This document shows positions 9,650 through 59,055 of a DNA stretch of 64,000 nt, in pieces. The stretch is from Chrysoperla carnea (Eukaryota; Arthropoda; Insecta; Neuroptera; Chrysopidae): the NCBI RefSeq assembly GCF_905475395.1, contig NC_058338.1, positions 70,443,435-70,507,434 on the forward strand. The letters run 5' to 3'. The position numbers and the translations under genes were made by a program. The notes under the pieces were generated by a model. It did not search any database. It had not been told where the DNA came from and was given only the letters and a program-made list of their open reading frames with translations. Numbering within the stretch: the stretch's first letter is position 1; each line of letters opens with the position of its first letter.

Positions 9650-12600
9650 ATGTTAGAATTAAATATTTTGTTTACAATAATTTGCATCATACTTTGTAGT
9701 GTAAGTAATACTTTTACAATTTTGTAAAATATATGTATATGTATAAATTAATGGGTAATAAATGGGTTTGTTTAATTTAATGGGTAATTTACCTTTTCAT
9801 TTACATATGTGAAACTTATGGTAAAAAATTTCAAAAATTTTCGAAGGTGAATAAAAATAATAGCATTTTAGATACACATAAAATAGGACCAAGTTCTTGC
9901 TAAATTACACCCAAGTTATAATTAGTATATACACCAGGTATGGGCAAACGTGGCTTAGAGAAGTTCCTCAGTCTTTTGAACCTAAAATACGAGTAAGACA
10001 GAGAGACAACTTTTTTTTCTACCTATCTCATTACTATAAGAGAAAATGAGATAGACAGAAGAATCGCATACCGGTCTCGCTTCCTCCTCTATGAGCAATG
10101 CGTTCTTGGATAAAGAGACACGCAATAAAGTTTATGACAGCCAATAAAGTTATAACAATGGTGACTTCGAGTTAAAATAACTCGCCCATGCCTGATATAC
10201 ACGTTATCTTTATTGAACGTACTGCTATATTTGCTCTGCAGCTAGCCTATCCGCTTCTCTATTTTCAGATGTAGACTCGAGTAAATCTCTTATTAAGGCT
10301 AATAAAGATAATCTATACTACGGTCCCACCAGATACTGCTCTAATGACTTATAAAAAACCATCGACTGATTAAATTTTATGCAGTTGAAAAACAAAAATA
10401 CGACATATGTACCCATATCTTACGTATATTCGTATTGATGCTCATTTCAAATACTTTATATCCTTCAACACGAAATGTAGTTAGAAAATTCACTTTTTCT
10501 TGGAAAAATATTTTTAGAAATGACATGTTTTGAGCTGAAGATACCGTTAACTGTAGATGTAGTGATTCATGAAAATGGTGCTTAACTTCCCAGTATAGGG
10601 AAGTTCTTGTAATCGTTCTATAATAATTCATGTTGAAGTATTTTAGGTAGTTATAGGAAGGTATTTATTATTTATTATTTATTTAGCCCGTTACATCAGA
10701 ATTACTTTTGTCATTCATTTTGCGTGCGAAAAATAGTTTATTACCGCACTCATTGTGGCAATGAATACCCATTTTTCATTGCCACACTCATTTTCAACCA
10801 ATCAAATAAGGCTAAAAACCTGTTAAAGTTACTATGTGGAAACCTGTTTAAGTCTTGTAAAAAAAGATTTTCTTCGGCCCGTTCCGTATTTTTACCTATC
10901 AACTAGAGATTCATTTCAAAGAAAAGTGTAGAAATTCCCATCTTGGTAAAAGGTCTTTGAAATCATTATCAATCATAATATACTCCACTTTCACATAGAT
11001 ACATTTTGCTCGAACTTTATGCATAATCATGCACTTTGATAACAAAAATAAGGTAATTTCATCACATACGGTTACAATGATAAACCAGGCCCGTGCGCAG
11101 GAATTATCCAAGGTAGGGGTTCAAACTTGTGTTCGCCATGTTAGGTGATTAAGTCAATATCACAAGAAATAGTTTTTTCGAGAAAACTAGAGAACTTTTA
11201 ATTAGGTCAAAATGTGATACTCAGTCACTATTTTTCAATAAGTTAATTCTACGCACTACAGAAAAAAACTTTTCCAAAACTCTGTGGGCATCGACGTCTA
11301 CACCGCGATATATATTAAGCGAGGCTAAACCGATCTAAGATTTAATGAGACGACGCAAGGTTAAAAGGAACGTTCATTTGCCGTTGTTGTCACAGGCAAA
11401 ACTTCCAGAACGCGAAGCATTTGGTAGACATTCGCGAACGCGTCTTTTTTGCCAATATCGTGTGCTTCGAGTGAATTTTTGGCATTCCGTCCGGCAATGC
11501 GTTTTCGCCAAAGCTGAACTTCGTCGATCCAAATGTCATGGGAATCATCGTGCAAAATTGAATATTCTAATTCAAAAAGTCTAGAGAAACGATTGTCTTT
11601 GAATAATTTTGTTTCTAATTACCTCGGAAACTATTTTTTCTAAACTGGTTATCCTTGTTACCCTACACAGTTTTTACATTCCAAAGTATTCAATAGCTTA
11701 ACACAGTTTTTACATTCCAGAGTATTGTAAATTCAAATTACATGGAATACGACATCTACAATGGTACACCCGTAAATGGTCAAAACGTAAATGTCCATTT
11801 CCTTCCAAGTACTCGTGAAAGTAATTATAATAAAAATGTTGATATCGATAAAGCAAATTATCTTAAAAATGTCAATGTTAATGAAGTTAAATATCAAAAT
11901 GATAACGAAAATGCAAGTATTAATGTAACAACAGCCGATTTAAAAGTTGTTGAATTGAATAAAACCGATTCAACATCCTTTCATCCAGAAACCGATTTAT
12001 TACTACAATTAAATGTAACATTTTCTAAGCAATCGGTACCACCAAATGATACTGAAGATCTCTTAAATTCTTTGAATTCGGAAGATGCAATAAATCTACA
12101 TAATCATCTATTTAGGGGTAGTGAAAGCTATCATATATGTCGAAGACTCCAACATAATCAATTCACTTGTTACACAATTCCAATACAGAATTTAAAACCA
12201 TACGTAAAACAACGTTTACATAAGATATTTCACTCGAAACAACCAAAAATACCATATTTATGTGATTTAACCAATCGCAAATTATTCGAGCAAAGTGAAT
12301 ATTGTAAGAAATTAAAAATGTATAAGAAAACTTATATGAAATTAAAATATCAATCGCTGATTCCAACCGATTTAGTTGATAATAATAAAACAGATGTGGA
12401 TGGACTTTTTTATTTTTGTGGATTTGACGATAATGATTTCGATGCAAATATTTGTTGGCCCGTAAATAATTCGAATAATTCTAAGGAAATTAGTTATTCA
12501 ATGCCGATTTTAGAAAAACATATACGTTCAAACACTACGTTATTATGCTACGTTGCAAAGGAACGTAATAATACACAAATTACATGCTGGCCAACACATC

Positions 12601-15600
12601 ATGTATCAAATCATTCGAGTGTTTTCCCTACTAATCGAACTTACATTTGTAATGTTATTTATAAAATTGATTCCGTTAAATTAACCAAATGTTGGTTGAA
12701 TACATCACGTAGAGAAAAGTCAATTTTAATGTCACGCAATGATTCATTTGTTTGTGAATATAAAACTGATGGATCTTTGTTGTCGGAATTTGTATGTCGC
12801 TTACGACACGTTCTAGATGAACTAACCCCAAGAGCCTCCACACCGCCAATGTATGCAAAAGAGGATTTTAATAATGTGTATCATCGGAGGCAGCGGTTCC
12901 ATAATTTTAGGAACAGTCGTCGAGTGAGACGTAATAGTTTCGAACATTTCCATACCAATCAAATGATTAATGAGCCACAAGTATTGAAAGTAAAATTCAA
13001 CGATATAACGTATATTGATGAACATCCAAATTCAACGCAATTAACAATGTCTTTGGTCATGAATCGTGGTAATGAAACGGAAAATCATCATTTGGCAGAC
13101 GAAAGTGACAAACACTCAACAAGGTAAGCTAAATTAGACTTAATCCAAACAAGTGAAAACAAACAATTGACTGAGTTGATTGTTGAAATACCATGCATAG
13201 TCAGTGTTGATTTCTTTATCACATAACACATACAAACATGTGACACATACCTATTATAAAATTTCCGCCCAATTAGCGCCCTCACGGGTAAACAGTGATG
13301 TTTGCGAAAAAATGTTTCAAACAAAAGTTGTTTAATTTTTGATAAGGAACATTTTTTACATTCAAACTTTTGTTCTATCTCTAACGGTTTACAAGATGGG
13401 TCCTACGGACTCAAGACCCAATTGACCTATGATGCTCATTTACAAACTTGACCTCACTTTTTACGTCCTGAGTACGCTGTAAAAATTTCAGCTCGATATC
13501 TTTTATCGTTTTTGAGTTATCGTGTCCACAGACGGACGGACGGACAACCGGAAATGGACTAATTAGGTGATTTTATGAACACCTATGACAACATTTTTTT
13601 CCTAGCATTATTATTTTTAAGCGTTACAAACTTGGGACTAAACTTAATATACTATGTATATTTCATATATGCATGATATAAAAATGAATCGAGACTAATC
13701 TTGACGTCAATTTTTTGGATTCCTTCAAGAAACATCCCTAGCCTACTCCCATAGTTTTCATTCACACTATATCAAAAGGGATTTTAAATAAGGCCGGAAA
13801 TCTTATCTACAACAAATTTTGCTTAATAGCCCATCCCATCCTAAAATACATCAGTCAAAACGCGATTTATCAACTTTGTTTCAGTTTTTCGTTGGTATGA
13901 ACGGGGAAAAACCCCCTTCACACACCCAAAATTAAATAATCGTTAAATTGATGTGAGTTGTTTCTTGCGTTTATAATCAGGGACAAAATATCCCCCGACA
14001 AAATATTCTCACGACACATTTCCACGGTCAAACTCTCACCTTGGCGAAATATTCCCACAACAAAATATCTTCAGATAAAATATCTCTAAATATATTTAAA
14101 AAATAGAAAATCTTTGAAATCAGTAAATGAATACGATCACAGTGTTAACCAAATAGCCAAACCCCAAGATCCGAGCCTACTCGACCCCATTTAAGGACTG
14201 GTCAAACTGTGGATCGCGGAATGAACGCAATCACAGAGTTAACCAAATAGTCTAAAAAACCTGCAGAGCCGTGAGAGAACTCAATTCCATTAAAATCATA
14301 ACCAACCCGTACACCAGTGAATAACCACAATCAAACGGGTAACCAAACAATCAAAAAACTCGTAGACTTTTGCTAACTCGACCCCATGAAAGCCATGGAC
14401 ATTTAGTTTGAAGATATTTTGTATTGGGAATCTTTTGTCGAGGATATTTTTTATCAAGAACTATTTTATCCAGGAATGTTTTTCGGTGTGTATTTTCTGT
14501 CAATGTGAAATTTTTCCCGAGAGATATAAACGTACAGTACCCTATTAGTTCTGGTCTAATGGTCATCTTAAACCGTAAGAGAAGGATACAATTTATGATA
14601 AATTTCAGACATAATTACACAGTGACACAGTACATTCTTGCACTTTAAGCTTATTGGGTTTAAAAATTTCATACAATTTGGCGTTATCATATAATTAACC
14701 TAAAAACCCTAATATTCAATCAAAACTCGTAAATAATCTTTTTGAAACTTAGGCCAAATTTTTAATCCAAAACTGTGACTTCTAAAAAAAATGTGCCAGG
14801 TTTTCGGTGAGTTTCTCACATATTATCGCATAGTTATAGAAATAATCCCACTTCTGTACGTCATTTAGTCGATTTGTAGAATGCTCTCAGGCAAACCAGC
14901 CTATTCCATTTAACAAACTATTATTTTGACATTCTGTTTTAGTTCTTTTGATTCTAGCGAAGAGAGAAAATATTCACAAACCAAAGAAAGTCATTTTTCA
15001 CCGAAACCAACGATACAAAACCATAATACAACGCCAAAACCAACTTATCATCATGAACCACTTACTGACGATTCAATTGCATATTTTCAATCCGACGAAA
15101 ATGTAAGTGAAGATCCCAGCGCAAATTTGGAGAAACTGATTAAAGATGCGAATTTTTCTAATCCACACGATATGAAACAGATAGTTCAAGGTGTTTTAGC
15201 AGAAATTAGCCAAGATCTTCTACAAAATCGAACTAAATTACATGCTGGCGATGTAAATAATCAGTTAGATTTTGATTTGAATTGGCTAAAGAACTTGTAC
15301 AATTCGTCACACAAAGATGTACATCCAGATGAACATATAGACGCACGTTCGGGTGGAAACTCACATGTAGACTCACCGTCAGAAAAGAATGCCCCTCCAC
15401 CGGAAACGGAAAAGCCGGAATCTGATCCTTCATATAAAACTTCATTCGTAGATACAAACAAGTTCGATAAAATATTTTTCAAGTAAGTTAAATTTGTCTG
15501 CTTTTATAAACGTTTTCAAGGTTAGACAAATGAACCTCAGACGTGAATGAGTGAGTTGTCTGATCCTTCTTACCAGCCCCTTCAATGAAGCCTTCTCTAA

Positions 15601-16875
15601 CTTTAAATAGGATGAAATTGTGCCCGTCTGTGAATGACGTTGGTGAACGTATTTGAATGCATCATTACCCTTAAATTAGAAAAATATTTAAATAATATAT
15701 ACTTTTGAAGGACAAGCTTTTGTACTAAAAAGTAAAAAATAATTATTTCTTTGAGTCACTCATACATGACTATTTGTAAAGCTTATATCAACTAAGCTAT
15801 CGCTAAAGCTTATATGCACAATTATACAGAGAAAAAAAGTATTAAAAATATATGTTAAAATTATTCTTAAGACTTTGTTCCTTGATTCAAGAAAATTTTT
15901 GCCTTTCTTTTAAAAGTAAAAAATTTTTTGAGGCAAAACACCCTTTTTTTCTGTACGCTACATTCAAAAATGTAACACAAATCGATCTGATAGAAGTAAT
16001 CGAAAAGAAACAAATGCCTTTAAAAGTCTGCCCTTTCTTAAGTTATTCTAGCCGTGTATGCCCGGAGATGGTAATGATAAATATGGTACTTTATTAATAT
16101 AATTTTATGCACATATAAGTCTATGATTTGAATATATGATTTACATTCATTATTTAATACTATTTTCAAAAAAAAAAAAAAAAACTAATTTAATCTAACA
16201 TTGTTTTTAAAAATATTATTTATGCAGCAATTTTGTCTATTATTTTCACAATTTCTAATGCAACAAGTTTACTATATCAATTACAGGTAAGCATTTGAAA
16301 CATAGAACACATTTTAAATAAAACGTTTGATTTATTGCAAATTTCATTAAAGAGCAGCGCTGCAATCGATTCACTTGCCCCCTTCACCTACTTTGTACTC
16401 AACAAATAGTGTGGACATGAAGAGTCCGATTTTCAATTAAATGACCAAAGACTTTATTTTCGAATAGGTACACGATGATAAAATTTTAAAATTAAAACAA
16501 GTAAAATATTGTAGATAATTTTAAAATTTTATCTTTGTTATTTTAATAACCAATTCATTTGGTTTTAGGTTTATTATGAATCACCAGCCAGAACGCGAAT
16601 GTAGCCATCAAAATCATCAATCCGAGCCGATAATTAAAACTAAATTATTTAGTTTTATCCCATTTACACATATCGTGCATCATCAAGTTGTTCAAATATT
16701 CCCAGATTCAAATAATACTGAACAACATCTGAATGTTCCTGAAACAGTAGCTTTTACAAATCATACAGAAAAATTCTATAAACCACAAGTGATTACAAAA
16801 ATTCCAAACAATTGGTTTAATTTAATGTCAAGTACTAAAGATATTCCGAATTTAGTCCATTATGACCGTGCATGA
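9650..16875 (+). CDS. Gene A: secreted six-module two-cysteine protein
   Basis: Exons 9650-9700, 11721-13123, 14943-15482 and 16569-16875 (stop) join with phases 0, 2 and 2 to give 766 aa. Exon 1 is a pure signal peptide, MLELNILFTIICIILCS, ending at donor GTAAGT; exon 2 follows acceptor ATTCCAG. Residues 25-156 are Asn-rich with several N-x-S/T sites. Residues 157-376 hold six modules, each with one cysteine pair spaced by 9-13 residues: C157/167, 198/212, 250/262, 293/306, 327/341 and 362/376. The second cysteine is often followed by W or Y. Next come RRQR and RRVRR, possible furin-type cleavage sites (about 406-421), then a hydrophilic Pro/Asp/Glu/His-rich tail. There is no membrane segment after the signal. 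I recognise no named family. A secreted lineage-specific protein (salivary, cuticular or reproductive) is my inference; structure confidence is high, function unknown. Confidence 0.8.
9935..10194. mobile_element. hAT-type MITE with perfect 8-bp target duplication
   Basis: Ends are CAGGTATGGGC at the left and GCCCATGCCTG at the right, an inverted pair. The element is flanked by identical 8-base copies ATATACAC (9927-9934 and 10195-10202). An 8-base duplication and a CAGG...GGGC end are characteristic of hAT transposons. At 260 bases it cannot code for a transposase. It sits in intron 1 of gene A. Confidence 0.9.
11086..11621 (-). pseudogene. hAT transposase C-terminal relic
   Basis: On the minus strand, an open frame through TKLFKDN, HDDSHDIWIDE and YQMLRVLEVLPVTTTANERSF matches the dimerisation region at the C-terminus of hAT transposases (the pattern ...LP-V-T-x-A-x-x-ERSF). 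A shift of frame follows; then TLRRLIKS, a stop, IGLASLNIY and VDVDAHRVLEKFFSVVRRINL continue the motif to a stop at 11221. The usual LRSTM segment is deleted. Sequence CAGGCCCGTGCGCAG at 11086-11100 is a plausible hAT terminal end beyond the stop. It lies antisense in intron 1 of gene A and is clearly dead. Confidence 0.75.
11665..11736 (+). repeat. 36-bp tandem duplication at the gene A exon 2 splice acceptor
   Basis: ACACAGTTTTTACATTCCA occurs at 11665 and again at 11701. The second copy reads CCAG-AG and is the acceptor used by the in-frame model (exon starts 11721). The first copy reads CCAAAG instead. Confidence 0.85.
13148..13680 (+). repeat. Dispersed ~560-bp repeat, copy 2
   Basis: Starts AACAAGTGAAAACAAACAAT and ends TATATGCATGATA. 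It carries CTCACGGGTAAACAGTGATG, TCTAACGGTTTACAAGATGG, an (ACGG)n tract near 13530 and TTACAAACTTGGGACTAAAC. It lies in intron 2 of gene A, beginning only 24 bases after the donor site. Confidence 0.9.
13981..14490. mobile_element. Foldback-like element with three internal tandem units
   Basis: The left arm is rich in GACAAAATAT / CAAAATATCTTCA (13981-14090). The right arm (14402-14475) carries the inverse, TGAAGATATTTTGTATTGGG and TTTTGTCGAGGATATTTT. Between them lie three degenerate units starting at about 14127, 14221 and 14317, each with (A)TCA(C/A)A...GTTAACCAAATAG or close variants; unit length is 94-96 bases. Inverted outer arms around a small tandem array is the architecture of foldback transposons. 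It is in intron 2 of gene A. Confidence 0.6.
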
Positions 16876-16990: not shown

Positions 16991-16996
16991 AATAAA
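16991..16996 (+). terminator. Possible polyadenylation signal of gene A
   Basis: AATAAA 115 bases after the gene A stop codon; it is the first canonical hexamer that I see downstream. Confidence 0.45.
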
Positions 16997-24655: not shown

Positions 24656-27600
24656 TTAATATGGCATATTTTTTCTAAAATTATTCACAAATGGATTATT
24701 TTGTAAAATTAAGAAATCAGATTTTGGTGGTGATAAATTACTCTCAAAATTTTTGTGTAACGTTGATGGCAAATGATTATTTGATCGACTTTGTAATGGT
24801 ACATTTAAGAATGGTGGATCACTTTTATAATTAATTGCTGGATATGGAATCGCTTCCAATGGTCTTTTATACACGTATTGTATTAGTTTACTTAATAATA
24901 AATTCGCTTCTTGATTATTTAAATCTTTAATATTTTTACAAGGCCTACCATTTTTATTGGTGGATTTATCTAATTCATTCAATAAGTTATCAATACCAGC
25001 GTATAACTCAACCAATGTTTTTGGATTCGATAATATTAGCGTATTTGAGTATTTTGTATCTTCACGCTCAATTTTTATTGTAATATTACACAGTTTATCA
25101 TTAAATAAATCATTGGAAGCAAACCTTAATAACGTACGCGTGTGTTGTTTCAAATATTCTTTTGAACATGTTCTTGAATCATAACAAAAATGTCGTTCAG
25201 TTGAATTAATATGTATTGAATATGAATAACAAATTAAAGGTGAGATACCAAATGGTGTAGTGCCTGGTTCTTTTGTTACAATACAGGGTGATTTGGAAGT
25301 GTGTGTATTAATTGTTTTACATTTATTTAAATCATCATCATCAATTGTTACGCAGAATGGTAGATTTGTTGTTGTTGTAATTTTCGTTTCACATGGTGGC
25401 AAAGTTGATGATTTTATTGTTGGTTTACTCTCAGTTGTCGGAGTAAAATCTGGCCAAGTGGTTGATTTATTAGTGCCATTTTGGTTCCCCACTTCTGGTG
25501 TACTAGAATTTACAATTCCACTTGTTGAGCTCTCCGTAGTTGAAACAGTAAACAATGTAGGAGTAGTTCGCCTTGTTGTTTTTATACTTGGTGTATTTTC
25601 ACTAGGCGTAGAGACCGATGCACTTCCATCTTTCGTGACTGGCCTTGGATCATGAGTACTCGATGTAAGTGAAGTACTAGTATTTGTTACTAAACTTGAA
25701 CTTATCGTAATTGAAGTTGTAGGTGTAGTTTCCGCTTCTGGCATTTTATCGGAAATAGTGGTTATTTCATCGGTAGTTTTTGTTGATGATGTAACTGCTT
25801 CACTTGTAGACTCGGTAGTAATTATTACAGTATTCGTTACAATTTCATTCGTAATTTGAGCAGTTTCATTTTGAGTTATTAATTTGGAAAGAGTTGTAGA
25901 TTCTGATGATTTAATATTTTCTCTGGTCGTTTTTGGACGTCCGGAGCTTTGAGTCATACTAGCGGCAGTAGACGGATTTTGTGTATGTTCTGTATCTCGA
26001 GGGCTTGGACTTGCTTGGGTAGATGTTGACAAATCGGATTCAGTTGTCACGAAACTTGCACTCGTTTCTGGCGACACTTCAGTAGTTGTAGAGTCTCCAT
26101 TTTCAGTAGGGCTCGATTCTGATGAAGATAAACTGGGAGTCGTGTCTTTTGTCTCATAACTAGGTTCGGTTTCCGAAGTAACTGGTACATCACTTGGTTT
26201 TGTTTTACTTGAGTATTCTTTAGTAGTTGTAGATCCCAAAGAAATGTAAGTCGTTTCTACCGATGTCGATGTTGATGATAAGACATCCTTGTCTGTTGGC
26301 ACCCAGCTTGTGTGACTTTCTGTACCGAAAGTAACGTCATGAGTTCTAGAATCTGTTTCACCTGATGTAATTGTAGATGAAGTATTTTCTGTGCTTCCTT
26401 TAGGTTCAATGGAATCAGTAGCTAAATTTTCTCCCGGTGTACTTGTTTCACCTGTTGGTTTTGTTAATTCTGTCGCAGAGGTATTTTCAAAACTACTTGG
26501 ATTTATCGGTGTTGACGTAGTTGGTGTTGAACTATCTACAGATGAATCTCTTTTAGATGGTTCAGGTGGTACACTTTCGGTTACTGAAGTAGGAAAAGCA
26601 GTTATTTCAGACGAGGCGGGAGTGGTGTTTATATCAGGAGTTTTACTTGTATTGTCGGTAGTTGTAGAATCTTGTACAGGAGTAGTAGATTCAGTGATCG
26701 TTTGTTTGGGTGAAGAACTTATAGTAGTTTCTTTACTTTCTGTTCCAGTTGTAATTAGAGAAGAAGCAGTATTATTTGTGGGTGTTGAATCTTGTGTACT
26801 TGTATCAGCTGTTGGTTCTGTTGATTCTGTCGAAGAAGTACTTTCAACACTACTTGGATTTGTTGGTGTTGTCGCAGTTGATGTTGAAGCATCCACAGAT
26901 GAACCTACTTTAGAGAGTTCAGGTGATGTACTTTCGGTTACTGAACTAGGTAAAGTAGAAGCTTCAGACGAGAAGGCTGTTGTATTTATGTCAGAATGTT
27001 GAACAGGGGTAGACGTTTCAGTGATCGCTTGTGTTTGTGAAGAACTTGAAGGAGTTTCTTTACTTCCAGCTCTAGTTGGAGTTACAGAAGGAGCAGTATT
27101 ATTTGTAGGTGTTGAACTTTGTGTACTTGTATCAGCTGTTGGTTCTGTTGAGTCTGTCGCAGAAGTACTTTCAACACTACTTCGATTTGTTGGTGTTAAT
27201 GTAGTTGATGTTGAACCATTCACAGTTGAACCTCTTTTAGGTGGTACACTTTCGGTTAAAGAAGTGGGAAAAGCACTTACTTCAGGCGAGGTGGGTTTTG
27301 TATTTATGTCAGGAGTTGTACTTGTATTGCCTGTATTTATAGAATCTTGAACAGGGATCGTTTGTGTTTGTGAAGAACTTGAGGGAATTTCTTTACTTCC
27401 AGCTACTGTTGGAGTTATAGAAGGAGCAGTATAATTTGTGGGTGTTGAATCTTGTGAAACTTCTGTTGTTTGTTCTATTGATTCTACCGAAGAAGTACTT
27501 TCAACACTACTTGGGTTTGTTGGTGATGACGTAGTTGATTTTGAAGCATCCACAGCTGAACCTTCTTTAGAGGGTTCAGGTGATGCACCTTCGGTTACTG

Positions 27601-30600
27601 TAGTAGGCAAAGTAGAAGTTTCAGGCGAAGAGGGTGTTGTATTTATATCTGAAGTTGTACTTGTATTGCCTGTAGGTGTAGAATCTTGAACAGGGGTAGA
27701 CGTTTCAGTGATCGTTTGTTTTTGTGAAGAACTTGAAGGAGTTTCTTTACTACTAAATCGAGTTGGAGTCACAAAAGCAACATTATTATTTGTGGGTGTT
27801 AAACCTTGTGTATTTGTTTCAGCTATTGGTTCTGTTGCTGCTGTCGAAAAAGTACTTTCAACACTACTTAGGTTTGTTGGTGTTGAAGTAGTTGATCTTA
27901 AAGCATCCACAGCTGAACCTTCTTTAGAGGGTTCAGGTGATGCACTTTCGGTTATTGAAGTAGGCAAAGTAGAAGTTTCAGGCGAGGATGGTGTTGTAAT
28001 TATGTCAGAAGTTGTACTTGTATTGCCTGTAGGTGTAGAATCTTGAACAGGAGTAGACGTTTCAGTGATCGTTTGTGTTTGTGAAGAACTTGAGGCAGTT
28101 TCTTTACTTCCAGATCGAGTTGGAGTTACAGAAGGAGCAGTATAGTTTGTGGATGTTGAACCTTGGGGTTTTGTTTCAGCTGTTGGTTCTATTGATTCTG
28201 TCGGAGAAGTACTATCAACACTGCTTAGATTTGTCGTTGATGACGCAATTGGCGTTGAACCATATACAGAAGAATCTGTTCTAGATGGTTCAGGTGATGC
28301 ACTTTCCGTTCCTGAAGTTGGCAAAGTAGTAACTTTAAACGAGGAAGGAGTTGTATTTATGTCAGGTGTTGTAGATGTATTGCTTGAAGTAGAATCTTGA
28401 ACAGGGGTAGACGTTTCAGTGATCGTTTGTGTTTGTGAAGAACTTGAAAGAGTTTCTTTACTTCCCGATCCCGTTGGAGTAACAGAAGGAGCAGTATTAT
28501 TTGTGGGTGTTAAACCTTGTGTACTTGTTCCAGCTGTTGGTTTTGTTGATTCTGTTGAAGAAGTACTTTCAGACCTACTTGGATTTGACGTAGTTGATGT
28601 AGTTGATGTTGAACCATCTACAGATAAACCTGTTTTAGATGGTGCAGGTGATGCACTTTCAGTTACGAAAGTAGGCAAAGTAGTAGATTCAGAAGAGGAG
28701 GGTGTTGTATTTATGCCAGAAGTTGTACTTGTATTGCCTGGAGTTATAGAATCTTGTAGAGGGGTACTTGTTTCAGTGATCGTTTGTGTGGGTGACGAAC
28801 TTGGAGGAGTTTCTTTACTTCCAACTACTGTTGGAGTAACAGAAGGAGCAGTAATATTTGTGGGTGTTAAACCTTGCGTACTTGTTCCAGTTGCTGGTTC
28901 TGTTGATTCTGTTGAAGAAGTACTTTCAAAACTACTTGGATTTGATGTAGTTGATGTTGAACCATCTACAGATGAACTTGTTTTAGATGGTTCAGGTGAT
29001 GCACGTTCGGTTCCTGATGTAGGCAAAGTAGTAACTTCAGGCGAGGAGGGTGTTGTTTTTATGTCAGGAGTTGTACTTGTATTGCCTGTAGTTATAGAAT
29101 CTTGTGCAGGGTTACTTGTTTCAGTGATCATTAGTATTTGTGAAAATCTTGAAGAAGTTTCTTTACTTCCAGATCCGGTTGGAGTAACAGAAGTAACAGT
29201 ATTATTTGGGGGTGTTGTACCTTGTGTACTTGTTCCAGCTGTTGGTTCTGTTGATTCTGTTGAAGAAGTACTTTCAACATTGCTTGAATTTGTCAGTGTT
29301 GACGTAGTTGGTGTTGAACTACTTACAGATGAACCTGTTGTAGATGGTTCAGGTGATGCGATTTCGGTTACCGAAGTAGGCCAAGTAGTAGCTTCAGACG
29401 AGTTGGGCGTTGTATTCATGTAAAGAGTTGTACTTGTATTGCCTGTATTTGTAGAATCTTGTACAGAGGTACTTGTTTCAGTGATCGTTTGTGTAGGTGA
29501 CGAACTTGATGGAGTTTCTTTACTTCCAGCTACTGTTGGAGTTACAGAAGGAGCAGTATAATTTGTGGGTGTTGAATCTTGTGAAACTTCAGTTGTTGGT
29601 TCCGCTGATTCTGTGGAAGAAGTACTTTCAAAACTACTTGGATTTGTTGGTGTTGACGTAGTTGACGTTGAACCATCTATAAGTGAACCTGTTTTAGATG
29701 GTTCAGGTGATGCATTTTCGGTTACTGAAGTAGACAAAGTTGAAGCTTCGAGCGAGGAGGGTGTTGTATTTATGTCAGAAGTTGTACTTGTATTGCCTGT
29801 AGTTACAGAATCTTGTACCGAGGTAGTTTTAATAGTGATCGTTTGTTTTTGTGAAGAGCTTGAAGGAGTTTCTTTACTTCCAGATCCAGTTGGAGTAACA
29901 GAGGCAACATTATCATTTGTGGATGCTGAACCTTGTGTACTTGTTTCAGCTGTTGGTTCTGTTGATGTTGTCGACGAAATACTTTCAACACTACTTGGTT
30001 TTGTTGGTGTTGACATAGTTGATTTTGAAGCATACACAGATGAACCTACTTTAGAGGGTTCAGGTGATGCACTTTCGGTTACTGAAGTAGGCAAAGTAGA
30101 AGCTTCAGGCGAGGAAGGTGTTGTATTTATGTCAGAAGTTGTACTTGTATTGCCTGCAGGTGTAGAATCTTGAATATGGGTAGACGTTTCAGTGATCGTT
30201 TGTGTTTGTGAAGAGCTTGAAGGAGTTTCTTTACTTCCAGCTTCAGTTGGAGTTACAGAAGGAGCAGTATTATTTGTAGGTGTAGAGCCTTGTGTATTTG
30301 TTTCGTCTGTTGGTTCTGATTTAGATGGTTCAGGTGATGCACCTTCGCTTACTGAGGTAGGCAAAGTAGTAACTTCAGACGAAGAGGATGTTGAAGTTAT
30401 ATCAGGAATTAAACTTGTATTCCTTGAAGGTGTAGAATCTTGTACAGGCGTTGTTGTTTCAATGCTCGTTTGTGTGGGTGAAGAACTTAAACTTCCAGCT
30501 CTAGTTGGAGTTACAGAAGGGAAAGTATTATTTATGGGTGTTGAACCATGTGTACTTGTTGCTACGTCCGTTGAATTATCCACTGGTGATGTTTCTTCTG

Positions 30601-33600
30601 TTGGAACCCAAGAAGAATAATAATCTGGCGTTGTTCTTTCGGTATCAGTGTTTGTAGATGCTGTCATTGTAGGAGTTAATGTGTTGTACATAGTTGGCAA
30701 ATATGTCGTAGTTTCTGGTTCATCAGATTTTGTACTAATACTTGTTGTTTTTTCTGTACTGAAAGTTGGGTCCGGTGTAACTGATGATGATGGAATTCTT
30801 CTTGAAGAGGATGGTTTTATTGTCGAGGAGCGAGGATCTGGTCTATTTTTAGAAACACTACTGGGTAACATAGATGGATCAAATGGAGTGCTATATTTTA
30901 TGGTGGTGGATGTGCTACTAGTAGAGCTTGGTTTATTAGAGGAAATTGTACTTAATTCAGTCGTATATTCAGTTTGCGAAGTTATTGTACTATCACTCTC
31001 TGTTCTGCGACTAGGCTTGTCTGGCTGAGTGATTGTGGATTTTTCGGTTGCAGGTGTTTCTGTGAATTTTGTTAGATTATTACATTCAGCAGCTTTTAAC
31101 TTTTGTTTTTTTGGGCTAACTCGTATTTCTAATTTTTTATGTAAAGAATTAGACCATTCACTTGTTTCTGTTATTAATATAGGTCCTGCACCACAAAATT
31201 TTTTTTGATGTTCACGTATTTTGATATTATCAATGACAGAAATCGTTGTAAAATTTACCACTGTACTTTTTCTTGTATCACTTTCATAAATTTCAAACGG
31301 TTCAACCTCTTGCAAGTCGGTACTATTGTTTCGGAATTTTAACGATATGTGATATGAGAAATTTGTGTTTTTATTAATATTATTCTTAAAATCAGCTGGT
31401 GTTTCTACTGATATCGCATATTCTCGTGTTACATAACGTTCTATACCGGTTTCGGTTAGAATATCTTTGATTTTTGTTATTTCAATCCAGCATAATGTAC
31501 TGTAATAATCATTATCGTTTTGTCTGATTAATTTCGTAACATTGTTCTCATTTTTCGATTTTGAACTGAAGGGATCTGCAATATCTACACAATGTTTCTT
31601 TTCGTCTGTGCATACCTGTATAAAATAATATTTAACAATTAGCACTCTTAACATTTTTTAATAGAGTTAAACAAAAAGAACTCGTAAACCTTAAAAATTA
31701 ACTATCCATAATCTTTTCAAATACCACTAAAAAACTTATTTACCTTTTTATCACATGACACCACCATTGTGCAATTCGATTTTTCAGCACTTACACTTGT
31801 ATTACGATGGAACACCAATATCTGAAACAAAAATTTCAACAATGGTTATCTACAAATCAAATTAAATTACCGTTGTGTTAATTAACAATAAATGTCGAAG
31901 TTTTGAACAAACTCCAAAATTAATTAGTTCTTAAAATTTTTTAAAAAAGATCTAATACATAAATCAAAATGTACGTCTGTAAAAAATTTTAAAACATTTT
32001 TGAAAATCAAAAATTTACATTTAAAGCCAAACTTCCCGATTGGATATCAAAACGCATATGCTTATTGTTCCAACATAAAACTGCATTTAATTCGGAATTA
32101 ATTTTTCGGGAGAAAAGTGACTTTTCCGAAAAAAAGAGAAAGTATGTACGTATGTAGATATTAAGAGAAAATAAATACATATGTACAAACGTACGTACGT
32201 ATGTTCGTAGAAATTTTTTTCGTCGTCGATATCGCGCGAACAAAAAATTATATCGACTTCGTTGAGTTGTCGATCGAAGCGTATTAACGGCAATATAAAC
32301 CCAAAAAATGTCATAGCATTCGCAAAAAAGTCGTTTCGAGTCGATGGAGTTTTTATTATACTGGGAAGTTCTTTGTGTGGACCTCAAGGGTCGCACCAGA
32401 CTTTACCCACAGCTTGTTCCATTAGATTCCAAGGTTGACCACTTTTTTTGACTAAGATGATCGGGTTTTTATAGTTTAGATTTTGAGAGTAATGCTATGT
32501 TGCTTGGTTGAAAATACGTATCGTAATATAAAAACAAGTGAAAACAAACAATTGACTGAGTTAATTGTTGAAATACCATGCATAGTCAGTGTTGATTTCT
32601 TTATCACATTACACATACAAACATGTGACACATACATTACTAATAAAGTATAGTACATATGTAAATGACTTTATAGGTTTCTGCATTACCGACCGACATT
32701 TAGTGTATAGTTTGTACACATATTATAAAATTTCCGCCTAATTGGCGCCCTCACGGGTAAACAGTGATGTTTACGAAAAAATGTTTCAAACAAAAGTTGT
32801 TTAATTTTTGATAAGGAACATTTTTTACATTTAAACTTTTGTTCTATCTCTAACGGTTTATAAGATGGGTCCTACGGACCCAAGACCCAATTGACCTATG
32901 ATGCTCATTTACGAACTTGACCCCACTTTTTCGTCCTGAGTACGCTGTAAAAATTTCAGCTCGATATCTTTTTTCGTTTTTGAGTTATCGTGTCCACAGA
33001 CGGACGGACGGACGGGCAACCGGAAATGGACTAATTAGGTGATTTTATGAACACCTATGACAAAATTTTTTTCCTAGCTTCATTATTTTTAAGCGTTACA
33101 AACTTGGGACTAAACTTAATATACTATGTATATTTCATATATGCATGGTATAATGAGTGTTCATTACCCAACTGAGTGCGGTATGATACAAATAAAGTAC
33201 AAAGTGTCGAAGATAAAAGAGGTCAGGAGTCTTACTGAACGTGACATTTGAATCAAGCGCTCGAAAGAGATCATATGAAGTCCAGCGACCCTTTCATGTC
33301 AAAGATCAGGTTGTTTTTGACAGTATTGCTTTGTCAATTGTTAAAAGTAGTTATAGATAGGGTTTTCCATAGTAAAGTTTTCAATTTAATATCCATAAAC
33401 AATACCCGAATACCTAATGAACTGATACAAGTTTTCAGAAACATGTTGAAACCTGCTAACTTGTGTATCAAAGTTCATGACGAACACTAATTTTAAAAAA
33501 TTACTACTTCTTGCCCACTCTGTAGCACATTTAAGTTTAAAAAATTTACTCTGCAGGGAATAGTAATTTTACAATAAAATTATGAGTAATTTCATCGTAA

Positions 33601-54900: not shown

Positions 54901-57900
54901 TCAGAACGACAACTCAAATATGACGGCATCACGCTCAATTGAAACACAGCCTTTTCGAAAAAAATCTTAGAGGAAAGTTTGTTAGACTTTTAGTTAACTT
55001 TTGGTAGGCTTTCAGGCTTTTAAAGAAACTTCGATTTATTTTGTTGCCGCTTATTGCATATACATACGCCCAATTTAAATAACGGTTTCGTGACTTTAGA
55101 CTTTAGATAATTTCAATTTAGCTCATCTTTACAGACAACGCCGAAGAAATCGAAAAAAATTCGTTCATATAAAATGGCAAACTGTTAATCTTTAAAAAAA
55201 TATACCTACTTTTACTGATACTAGGAAATATGAAACCGAATGATAGATACCTAACTAAAATGACCAACAAAAGACCAACCGAAACTAAGTCCTTAAATCT
55301 TTAATATTCGCACTTAAAATCTTATCATTAATTGAAATCAATAAAAAAAATTATTTTTGTCAAAGAATGACGAAATATTAGCAGTATATCTAATAAACAA
55401 TTGAAATAATTTCATAATATTTTTTACGTCTTTTGACCATAATATAAGTTAATTAATAACCCGGGTTTTAAATCATTTTAACCTGTCAAAATTACACATA
55501 TACTGACGCAAACACGTGTACTTAAATTTTATGCAAAATGTTTATTTTTATTTTTATTTGTTTTATTTAATAGCCATTTACTTTGTTTATTTAATTTTGT
55601 AATGGACACATAATAAAGCGTTTCTATAATTAATTATTTTTGTCTGTTTTGCAAACAAAAATTTTGCGATGTGACGCTTCTAAGTTTTTTCCCAGAAATT
55701 CGTTTACGACTTATTTTTAAGAAATATGTATATTTTTCCATGAAGCTAATAAATTCAATTGGTTCATAGCTTATTGTTAGTGTCTATACAATAGCTATAT
55801 CAGTAAAGTAATTTACATTGCCTATAATTTTTTAATAAAAGCGAATTATTTTTTAAACTGAAAATATTTGTTACAGGAAGTGGTGTTAGTATTGTTTTGG
55901 AGTATGTAAAGTCAAATGTTAATGATCACTTTCAATTGCAAAATCCATTAATTCGTGTTGTAGATGAAGCTGCCCTTGCAATTGGTCAATTTATTATTCC
56001 ACACTTAACATATGGATTCATCCGATTGTATACATTACAATATGCACCAATACTTCAAAGTACAATTTTAATTCAAATTATACCGTCCATATTGTTATTA
56101 AAAAACTCGTTAATTGGCTTACCAACAATTAAATCTCGATATTCCGATTTTCAAAGGTAAATATAGGTAGGTTCAAAGGTATACACATTGATCAATTATA
56201 CTTTTTATCCACGCCATTTTTAAGATTACTTCAGTCTTCCCGAGGCCCTGTGTTAAGCGCTCGTAATTGTACACTCAGCTTTTTTCATCGTCAGCACGCC
56301 CTCTGCGAAGAGCATTACGGCGTTCCAAATGTTTTTAGTTTTGGGCATCAGATCTATGATATTGTTTAGGGATGGTGATGTTCTCTTAAGAAATCTCAAG
56401 CAGAATTCCTCTCCACGCCCTATTTTTTGCAACAAAATAAGGTTTGGTACACGCTGTCCGTTCCCTGGTGATACGCGCAGGTTTGGGCAGCTACCAAACC
56501 TACATATTCGTTGAGGATTCATGTCCGCTTTCTATCCAGGTGTAAAAGTGTCTTTCAAATTTCAAAATAAAATCCCTTAAAAATAATTTCGTATTGAAAT
56601 GAATCGAATCAACGAATGAATCAGAAACTCGGTTTTCGATTCAGTCGTATTAAAACTCATTAAAAATTTTGAATAAGACATTCTTCAAGATACGTTTAAG
56701 TAAATACAAACTAATTTTCAGGCCACTAGCATTACTAACTGATCAAGAAATGGTTGTATTCAATGCAGAACACGTTACTGCTACTCCTGAAGTAAATACT
56801 AATGAAAATGGCAGTAATTTAAGCACATTTCGACAGTGGAAGAGTTTACCAAATATATCGCAAACTGAAGAAGTTCTTCAATCAAATCAAACACAAGAAA
56901 ATGAGCAAGACAATAAAAATGACAATATCGTAGAAGAAATTGTGAAAGACAATGAAAATATTCCGGAGAATCCAAATACTAATATTTTCCGATTAAAAAC
57001 TGAATATGGTGTTGAAATTTTACCAGAAATACCTGAAGAAAATGAAGATACATGTTCAGTAATCAGTAGTAACACAAATGTGTATAATAAAAATTTAAAT
57101 CGTTTAAGTGTCATTAGTACAAAACTTGATGAAATGATTTTACGACAAGATGCAAAAGATGTCTATATTACTGATAGTAAAGATGGCGTCTTATCGATTT
57201 CAAATGAACATAGTTATAAAATATTATCGGAAAATACAAATTATAATTCAATATTATCACCATATAAGACATATCGAGTAAAAAAATCTTATCGTTATTT
57301 AAAACATTACATTTACGATTGGTTTTTACGACCATTAAAATTATCATTAAAGTTAAATTCATTTTATTTAACATTATTTGCTAATTTATCGTTGTATCTT
57401 AGTTGGTATTCATTCTTATGTTTTATTCCTGTATTTACAAAATTGATTGATGCATCATCATTGATTGGTTTACATGAACCAGTATTTATAATATCGATTG
57501 CAGCATTTTTATGGATTGTATTTCTAATAATTACACCGTGGATAGCTGATCTTCCAAAACGTCATTTGAAAATTATTTTTATATTTGGTACAATACTGAA
57601 AGGAATTGGATTCTTTGGTATGTAATTTATTTGTAATAGCTAATTTATTAATTTTTAAATCCCTGGAGGTTGCAAGAAAAGTTCTCCATCTATCACGATT
57701 TCCAACTATAGATTTAACTTAATTTAGGCCATGCATTATTCTTCGATTCGTTGCTCCAAATGATCTTACAACATTCATTATTTTGCCTTGAGAATTCCAA
57801 CCAATCTTCTGCCGACAAATTTTCTCGTAAGGTTTATAAACAATAAGCCAAATCCATTCAAAAAATCTTTCTTAATTTTTGCTACATAAATGTGGTTGGT

Positions 57901-59055
57901 TGTGGTACCATTCTACAGTTCTGGGTTTGGAACAATTTCAGTTCCAAATGCTTCTTGGTAATATATACTAGGATAGACGCCCGAAATATCTAAGTTTTTG
58001 CTCAGAAAAAATTAATAATATCTAAACTTGAGATTAATTATAATTAGACATTCTATTACTCCTAAATTAGGTGAACGCAAGTTTCTGGTGTTCGAAACGG
58101 AATTGTTCCAGTCAAACTTATGGAACTTAATTTCCTTTTCGCTCCCCCATATAAGTTCTTATATATATCTATAAGAGTCTAAAGGATTGGCATTGCACAA
58201 TTGTAAATTATTTTAAAAATTTTTTGAAAGAAATCCAACAGAATGTAGCGTCCGATACACTTGCGCGTCAAACGTGCACGTGCATATAATTTTTCTTAAG
58301 CTAATCCACCATACAAATGACGTTTCTATAATCAATCGCGGGGAACTTTTATTTGCACTATTTCAATTTTTTTACCAGCGATAATAATAAATTACTTTAA
58401 GTTTTAATTTTGTAATACGTCAGTCCTAAGACACATAAAACAATCAATTTTTTTTTTCTAAAATAAAACAAAATTATTCGTTTTCTATTCTTTTACTTTT
58501 TTTTAGAATCAGAATTTCAAGGACATGACGCTTGAATAAATTTGTGTTTTATTATTTAAACTGACCAAAATTTTTAAAGTTCTAAATATCTTAATGAGTG
58601 CTGTGCAAAATAGTTTCCCCGTCCATAAGGACAATAGCGCCCCATCCTGATTATAAACGTTCTTTTATTCCCGTATTCATATAATTTTATTTTATATTTC
58701 AGTATTTGCAAATAGTTCAAATCATGAAACAGTTACGTTTGGCAGTATTATTTTTGGATTTGGTTTTGGGGCAGCTTCATTTACACTGATGACAGTCATT
58801 AAAGAATGTTTAGGAGTCCGAAATTGGTCCTTATTAAAAAAGACTTTATATACATTTACCGGTTTAACAATTTTAATTTTTGTAAATCTTATACATAGAA
58901 AATTAAATGATTTTAATGGATTAACATTCTATTTTAAATTAATTGGTGGATTTGAAATCTTTGTTGGATTATATTGGTTTATCTGCCACATTATCTACAT
59001 GACAAATAATAACATCAATTCAAGATGGAATAGTATAGACTCAATGTATAATTAA
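51958..59055 (+). CDS. Gene C: monocarboxylate-transporter-like MFS protein
   Basis: Exons 51958-52062, 52913-53036, 53949-54110, 55877-56156, 56722-57617 and 58703-59055 join in phase (0,1,1,2,1) to give 639 aa. The plan is that of SLC16-like major facilitator proteins. An N-terminal half of about six membrane segments (residues 25-220) ends at RPLALL. A hydrophilic, acidic, probably cytosolic loop follows (about 225-435), then six clear segments: FYLTLFANLSLYL, PVFIISIAAFLWIVF, IIFIFGTILKG, FGSIIFGFGFGAASF, LYTFTGLTILIFV and IGGFEIFVGLYWF. Such proteins move monocarboxylates or related small acids across membranes; the substrate here cannot be told. It is divergent: the usual DGGWGW start of TM1 is replaced by STKWEILVTSF, and the usual RxGxR-type loop is weak. 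The ATG is the first after an in-frame break. Confidence 0.8.
52371..52744 (+). repeat. Dispersed ~560-bp repeat, copy 9 (5'-truncated)
   Basis: Begins inside the family at GCGCCCTCACGGGTAAACAG and runs to the end ATACATGGTATAA. About 40 internal bases around the ACAAGATGGGTCC block are missing. It lies in intron 1 of gene C. Confidence 0.88.
53571..53930. mobile_element. Tigger-like MITE, 360 bp, with internal 38-bp triplication
   Basis: Inverted ends CAGTAGAATCTCGATAACTT and AAGTTA-type ACTTATCGAGATTCTACTG are flanked by TA on each side. The interior repeats ACCTCTATAACTTAAA. The 38-base unit ACATAGAAACATGTACATAC + CTCTATATTAACTAGCGT is repeated almost three times (53728-53836). It lies in intron 2 of gene C. 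Confidence 0.85.
54574..54900 (+). mobile_element. hAT end relic
   Basis: CAGTGGTTCTCAAACTCATT at 54574 is a typical hAT terminal repeat. The inverted right end is not found in the intron, so only one end survives or the other is too decayed to see; my right boundary is arbitrary. It lies in intron 3 of gene C. Confidence 0.4.
56253..56522 (-). pseudogene. Possible LINE ORF2 C-terminal relic
   Basis: The minus-strand 89-aa frame ends with SLNNIIDLMPKTKNIWNAV then MLFAEGVLTMKKAE. This recalls the extreme C-terminus of I/R1/Jockey-clade reverse-transcriptase proteins (pattern ...W..V..F...V(L/M)..K..E), and the segment is GC-richer than the intron around it. The match is by eye and weak. It lies antisense in intron 4 of gene C. 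Confidence 0.3.

What the first reader, a model, noticed from the sequence alone, without database searches (positions are those of the whole stretch)
9650..16875. Gene A: secreted protein of six tandem two-cysteine modules with its signal peptide on a 51-base exon
Seen: exon phases close exactly (2301 bases). Six modules each have one cysteine pair spaced 9-13 residues, mostly followed by W/Y, and all sit in one exon. Many N-glycosylation sites, RRQR/RRVRR possible processing sites and no membrane anchor follow. I know no family with this pattern. Paired-cysteine modules recall aphid 'bicycle' effectors, but those genes have many micro-exons, so membership is not claimed. This is the best candidate for an undescribed secreted family here.
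Basis: partly seen in the sequence, partly recalled or inferred. Interest (0 to 1): 0.75.

Follow-up and report, generated by a model that had tools for sequence, protein, structure and literature searches.

The report
Lacewing secreted protein with cysteine hairpins
A green lacewing appears to carry a single-copy gene for a sugar-coated secreted protein built around six small modules that are probably each closed by one sulphur bridge; it matched none of the protein families searched, and what it does is not known.

Summary
Four exons join with GT-AG borders into 2301 bases (766 residues), and exons 2-4 nearly fill their open frames. Of four candidate first exons in phase in 7.7 kb upstream, only 9650-9700 is strongly hydrophobic. 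Twelve cysteines alternate between short (10-14) and long (21-38) steps: P 9.5e-5 with limits set after seeing them, 0.0018 without limits. Sequons number 24 against 11.5 shuffled (0 of 5000 reach 24). The genome matches Chrysoperla carnea, chromosome 2. No convincing paralogue was found there. Pfam, NCBIfam and PDB sequences gave no significant match to the cysteine exon. Aphid bicycle genes differ in exon structure and cysteine spacing. A weak model (mean pLDDT 52) shows modules 4-6 as beta-hairpins with facing cysteines. My reading is a secreted, possibly furin-processed glycoprotein with six one-disulfide hairpins. It is an orphan relative to what could be searched, not a shown family. No RNA, peptide or other insect sequence was available, so splicing, tissue and role remain untested.

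The parts
9650..9700 (+). Exon 1: start codon and signal peptide (residues 1-17, phase 0); the hydrophobic core runs into exon 2; putative cleavage after ...IVNS (by eye)
   Evidence: translation, GT donor; the only strongly hydrophobic one (3.47, next 1.31) of 4 candidates with a donor of at least 7 of 9 between 4000 and 11700; its own donor scores 7 of 9, as 127 of 3414 GT sites do or better; top hydrophobic window.
11721..13123 (+). Exon 2: residues 18-484 and two bases of 485; holds all six modules and both candidate processing sites
   Evidence: open-frame chance 9.5e-18; codon-position bias.
12138..12170 (+). Module 1, C157-C167
12261..12305 (+). Module 2, C198-C212; the odd one out, helical in the weak model
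12417..12455 (+). Module 3, C250-C262, followed by W
12546..12587 (+). Module 4, C293-C306, followed by W; low-confidence beta-hairpin model with the two cysteines facing
12648..12692 (+). Module 5, C327-C341, followed by W; low-confidence beta-hairpin model
12753..12797 (+). Module 6, C362-C376; low-confidence beta-hairpin model
12885..12932 (+). Two candidate basic processing sites, RRQR (406-409) and RVRR (418-421, furin consensus R-X-[KR]-R)
   Evidence: Read by eye; consensus recalled, cleavage not tested
14943..15482 (+). Exon 3: charged, Ser/Asn/Pro-rich tail without cysteine, probably disordered (by composition)
   Evidence: only its own place found in the genome; Pfam DELLA at E 0.099, 13 bits, below the cut-off of 23.8, taken as chance
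16569..16875 (+). Exon 4: one base of codon 665, the last 101 codons and the stop (TGA directly followed by TAA); AATAAA at 16991
   Evidence: only its own place found in the genome. Weakest link of the model because of 16222-16286.
16222..16286 (+). Possible alternative first exon (ATG, open, strong donor CAG|GTAAGC) that would join exon 4 in the same phase: a possible separate small gene, or chance
   Evidence: the only such candidate found in intron 3; 22 of 3414 GT sites of the + strand score 8 of 9 or better.

Best explanation
This is a real protein gene of a green lacewing, single copy as far as could be searched. The product enters the secretory pathway through a cleaved signal peptide (inferred) and is heavily N-glycosylated (inferred from sequon excess). 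It folds residues 153-385 into six small modules, most of them beta-hairpins closed by their own disulfide (inferred from cysteine alternation and weak models). A furin-type protease probably cuts at 406-421 and frees this rigid cysteine domain from a long, flexible, charged tail (inferred, untested). It most likely works outside cells as a structural or binding glycoprotein of a secretion or extracellular coat. Which secretion (larval venom or saliva, gut, egg, silk or reproductive tract) cannot be told from DNA.
For: Intact four-exon frame with matching phases; open-frame improbability and codon-position bias; one clearly hydrophobic first exon among 4 candidates; short/long cysteine alternation, P 9.5e-5 with limits and 0.0018 without; shared flanks around the cysteines (12 of 5000 shuffles); sequons 24 against 11.5 (0 of 5000); no membrane span; hairpins with facing cysteines in modules 4-6; no DNA repeat copy of exon 2 in the surrounding 263 kb.
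Against: No RNA, peptide or orthologue evidence. Both structure models are weak: mean pLDDT 36 for all six modules and 52 for modules 4-6 with only three further, poorly aligned rows. The weaker model puts strands at modules 1, 3, 4 and 6, little at 5, and helices at module 2. Modules 2 and 6 lack the aromatic residue after the second Cys. The flank positions tested were chosen after seeing the sequence. Cleavage and disulfides are unmeasured.
Confidence: 0.6

Rival explanations
1. It is a component of the injected larval venom or saliva of the lacewing, one of the uncharacterised secreted proteins reported there.
For: The lacewing venom study reports 7 core-venom genes without similarity to known proteins, several with high predicted disorder (PMC12758981, section 8). 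Gene A looks secreted, matches no family and has a long low-complexity tail.
Against: No coordinates or accessions of those 7 were seen (supplement look-ups are capped at 0 and were not tried). Sections 8 and 9 and the passages seen do not describe a six-module cysteine protein. Most orphan secreted genes of an insect need not be venom.
Confidence: 0.15
2. Two neighbouring genes were fused in the model: exons 1-3 are one gene, and exon 4 belongs to a separate small gene that starts at 16222.
For: An open ATG exon 16222-16286 with a strong donor (8 of 9 positions) meets exon 4 in the right phase.
Against: Its peptide is only weakly hydrophobic (1.99 against 3.47 for exon 1), donors this strong occur 22 times on this strand of the window, and exon 3 also reaches exon 4 in phase with an 8-of-9 donor.
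Confidence: 0.15
3. It is a highly diverged member of a known secreted family (for example an RCC1-like or lectin-type beta-propeller with six blades) that sequence profiles no longer recognise.
For: Six modules with a hydrophobic-C-x(9-13)-C hairpin, W or Y following in 4 of 6, recall RCC1-type blades (recalled). Several of the 50 Foldseek rows shown are propellers or fucose lectins (named so by row title or my recall).
Against: All 90 Foldseek matches have E of 0.92 or worse, with TM 0.34 or less in the 50 rows shown, and the query model is poor. No Pfam match of the module region even at E 10 (HMMER's filters drop most weak ones). Modules 4 and 5 begin only 34-35 residues before the next, short for a four-stranded blade.
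Confidence: 0.15
4. It belongs to the aphid bicycle effector family.
Against: Four exons rather than about 17; internal exons of 1403 and 540 bases rather than tiny; internal exons enter in phases 0 and 2; different cysteine spacing; the published folds are helical and saposin-like.
Confidence: 0.01

Closest known systems
Secreted cysteine-rich repeat proteins (SCREPs), an architecture class
   Same: Secreted, one chain with several tandem disulfide domains; the class's filter asks for at least one disulfide per domain (passages of PMC6262176)
   Different: Repeats named in the passages seen are ICK, Kunitz, sushi, chitin-binding, thrombospondin type 3 and Sel1-like; here one putative disulfide per module, of none of these types, in a long glycoprotein. 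Independent folding of modules is unproven.
Bicycle proteins of aphids, phylloxerans and scale insects
   Same: Secreted insect proteins with repeated cysteine units
   Different: Exon structure and cysteine spacing differ; the published fold is helical, ours is undetermined
RCC1-type beta-propeller blades (recalled)
   Same: A hydrophobic-Cys ... Cys-Trp hairpin of similar length
   Different: No RCC1 profile match, no glycine signature, shorter repeats (recalled comparison)

Membership tests
Bicycle family | Many small internal exons (characterised genes average about 17 exons, minimum 5), nearly all starting in phase 2 | tested here: not met
   4 exons; internal exons of 1403 and 540 bases; internal exon phases 0 and 2 (criteria from passages of PMC9168663)
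Bicycle family | CYC motif | tested here: not met
   Six pairs with 9-13 residues between; in one solved bicycle protein the two cysteines of a motif are 62 and 71 residues apart (C30/C92, C120/C191; passages of PMC13041983). Some bicycle members lack the motif, so this alone is weak.
Bicycle family | Helical saposin-like fold | tested here: inconclusive
   Models are too weak; they show strands at modules 4-6 and helices at module 2
Bicycle family | N-terminal signal sequence | tested here: met
   Hydrophobic N-terminus; not specific to this family
SCREP architecture class | Secreted, at least two disulfide domains in tandem, at least 4 cysteines | tested here: met
   Signal peptide, 12 cysteines in six pairs; the disulfides themselves are inferred. 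The class's length limits were not checked.
SCREP architecture class | Independently folded disulfide-rich domains | not testable with these tools
   Needs a structure; models too weak
Any Pfam, NCBIfam or PDB-sequence family (cysteine exon) | Profile or sequence match above threshold | tested here: not met
   Pfam: 0 families for exon 2 at E<=1 and for the module region at E<=10; NCBIfam 0 for exon 2 at E<=1; PDB sequences: 3 matches, best E 1.1
RCC1-like propeller | RCC1 repeat profile | tested here: not met
   No Pfam match of exon 2 or the module region

The most novel reading that the evidence does not exclude
A neuropteran-specific secreted glycoprotein family with a new elementary fold: a tandem array of six one-disulfide beta-hairpins that is freed from a disordered tail by furin.
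Probability: 0.25. Interest if true: 0.6.

Novelty: new variant of a known kind. Interest (0 to 1): 0.36.

Why it matters
Secreted proteins without relatives are where new insect functions (venom, saliva, egg and cuticle coats) can arise, and profile libraries miss them. This gene is a clean, intact example with a clear cysteine rule. Its fold and tissue can be tested directly in a commercially reared biocontrol insect (PMC10116181) with a published genome and long-read transcriptomes (PMC12758981 abstract). If it proves ordinary, it is one more orphan secreted glycoprotein.

Tried and rejected
Paralogues: protein searches of the whole own genome with exon 2 (itself and one place at E 0.25), exon 3 (itself only), exon 4 (itself only) and modules 4-6 (itself and three places at E 0.106, 0.174 and 1.83). 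The best, on C4 near 33163147, lies in an 81-residue open frame. Its alignment score of 90 beats 2000 shuffles of that frame (maximum 58), and the other five frames of the same 9.9 kb reach 42-50. But it was the best of a whole genome; by my own rough scaling (no call) a score near 90 is expected there by chance, and it keeps only the first cysteine pair. The other two places (C2:98046617, C4:48221705) do not keep the cysteine pattern. Not accepted as relatives, though a decayed fragment on C4 is not excluded.

Tandem cluster: of 534 stop-to-stop frames of 60 or more residues in 263 kb around the gene (900 bases not fetched; frames running into that gap dropped), gene A has six such pairs, one 80-residue frame has two, and no other has two or more. 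Kinship with the mucin-like neighbour: suggestive by eye; pairwise BLAST best E 1.9 for its C-terminus and 0.05 (an 11-residue match) for its N-terminus. Not claimed.

Viral or bacterial origin: no match in viral contigs; in prokaryote genomes 14 pattern matches, none confirmed; with a single protein this tool finds close relatives only. Structure: weak; Foldseek best E 0.92. Module alignments: both cysteines stay in register only for the short pieces. Literature: the listings (12 of 4,867 listed) showed no description of this protein; supplement look-ups are capped at 0 and were not tried.
Full report
Where it is. The window is G000:C2:70443435-70507434 of a 559,487,470-base genome in 337 contigs; C2 has 100,744,152 bases and C4 77,476,099. 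The published Chrysoperla carnea assembly has 337 scaffolds, 560 Mb, chromosome 2 of 100.74 Mb and chromosome 4 of 77.48 Mb (PMC10116181, main text part 1 of 2 read). I take the window to be chromosome 2 of the common green lacewing.

Gene model. Exons 2-4 nearly fill their open frames: in exons 2 and 3 the donor falls just before the frame's stop codon. The chance of such open frames is 9.5e-18, 2.7e-7 and 1.9e-4 at window composition, and the exons show codon-position bias that a 1.2-kb stretch of intron 1 lacks. I looked for first exons with a donor of at least 7 of 9 that could enter exon 2 in phase between 4000 and 11700: four candidates, of which only 9650-9700 is strongly hydrophobic (3.47 against 1.31, 1.22 and -0.17). 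Its donor is not exceptional: 127 of 3414 GT sites score as well or better. An AATAAA lies at 16991. The weakest part is exon 4, because an open ATG exon at 16222-16286 with a strong donor could join it in the same phase. No RNA was available, so no splice is proven.

The protein. Signal peptide; an Asn-rich linker with 6 sequons to about 152; the cysteine domain 153-385; two basic sites at 406-409 and 418-421; then a tail rich in Ser, Asn, His and acidic residues with a single Cys at 676. The twelve cysteines step 10, 31, 14, 38, 12, 31, 13, 21, 14, 21, 14. Random placement reproduces this with P 9.5e-5 for limits that I set after seeing the steps, and 0.0018 if only every short step must be below every long one. 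The flanks repeat as well: I, L, V or F precedes every first Cys (1 of 5000 shuffles), H, Y, Y, L, Y, F stand at -2, and W or Y follows 4 of 6 second cysteines; the total flank similarity is reached in 12 of 5000 shuffles. The flank positions were chosen after seeing the sequence. Sequons number 24, against 11.5 +/- 3.0 in shuffles, none of 5000 reaching 24, which is good evidence for a secretory glycoprotein. No later stretch could span a membrane.

Structure. A model of all six modules from one sequence is too weak to use (mean pLDDT 36); for what it is worth, it puts strands at modules 1, 3, 4 and 6, little at 5 and helices at module 2. A model of modules 4-6 with three further poorly aligned rows has mean pLDDT 52, with 54 of 97 residues under 50. 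It shows three hairpins, strands 3-10/13-20, 37-45/48-55 and 70-78/84-92, in which the cysteine pairs 5/18, 39/53 and 74/88 stand opposite or nearly opposite each other. This fits one disulfide per hairpin but is weak evidence. Foldseek found nothing significant (90 matches at E<=10, best 0.92); several propellers and fucose lectins among the 50 rows shown are a lead only.

Relatives. In its own genome the searches with exons 3 and 4 found only the gene itself; those with exon 2 and modules 4-6 added weak places at E 0.1 to 1.8 that I do not accept (see Tried and rejected). Within 263 kb no second frame has more than two such cysteine pairs. Exon 2 has no Pfam or NCBIfam match and no significant PDB sequence match; exon 3 has only a sub-threshold Pfam match (DELLA, E 0.099) and exon 4 none. 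No close viral or prokaryotic relative was found. No other insect genome could be searched, so orphan status is relative to these collections.

Known systems. Characterised bicycle genes have about 17 exons on average (minimum 5), small internal exons nearly all in phase 2, CYC motifs (passages of PMC9168663) and saposin-like helical folds (passages of PMC13041983). Gene A fails on gene structure and cysteine spacing. The broader architecture class of secreted cysteine-rich repeat proteins (passages of PMC6262176) fits by the part of its filter that I saw, with a module type not named in those passages. Lacewing venom includes 7 uncharacterised core proteins (PMC12758981, section 8; section 9 and further passages seen); whether gene A is one of them could not be checked. 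A second venom paper (PMC11319779, abstract and passages) says nothing on this gene in what I saw.

Surroundings. Downstream and convergent lies a mucin-like gene (24656-31657, minus strand) with a 2333-residue frame. Intron 2 carries a dispersed repeat with many copies nearby; intron 1 holds an hAT-like fragment below Pfam's cut-off. End segments of the mucin-like gene look similar to the modules by eye, but the pairwise comparison does not support kinship.

Verdict. It is a secreted, glycosylated protein, orphan in what could be searched, with a regular six-pair cysteine domain. 'Undescribed family' is possible but unshown; mechanism and tissue are inferred or open. The most likely function is an extracellular structural or binding glycoprotein.

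Noticed in passing
24656-31657 (-), exon upstream at 31744-31821 (-): Single 2333-residue open frame, Thr/Ser/Pro-rich and repetitive (mucin-like) with short cysteine-bearing ends; an in-phase upstream exon ends in what looks by eye like a signal-peptide tail. Own-genome searches with its two ends found only itself, plus one weak place at E 0.66.
   Followed up: partly
16222-16286 (+): Open ATG exon with strong donor inside intron 3 that meets exon 4 in phase: possible alternative first exon or separate gene.
   Followed up: partly
13147-13685 (+): About 540-base dispersed repeat in intron 2; 40 BLAST matches to intron 2 in the surrounding 263 kb, at least 4 of the 14 rows shown near full length at 79-90% identity.
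   Followed up: partly
11364-11618 (-): Open fragment in intron 1 resembling the hAT dimerisation region, below Pfam's cut-off (E 0.011).
   Followed up: partly
56654-59055 (+): Pieces that look by eye like a membrane transporter gene; a weak MFS_1 match lies in 56657-57622 (E 0.004, below cut-off).
   Followed up: no
L003:4600-4845 (G000:C4, near 33163147): 81-residue open frame with an LLICY...FCF stretch that was the best genome match to modules 4-5 (E 0.106-0.25); chance or a decayed fragment.
   Followed up: partly
G000:C2:70545141-70549215 (in L019 and L020): Two consecutive long frames (466 and 893 residues) that look by eye like a non-LTR retrotransposon.
   Followed up: no
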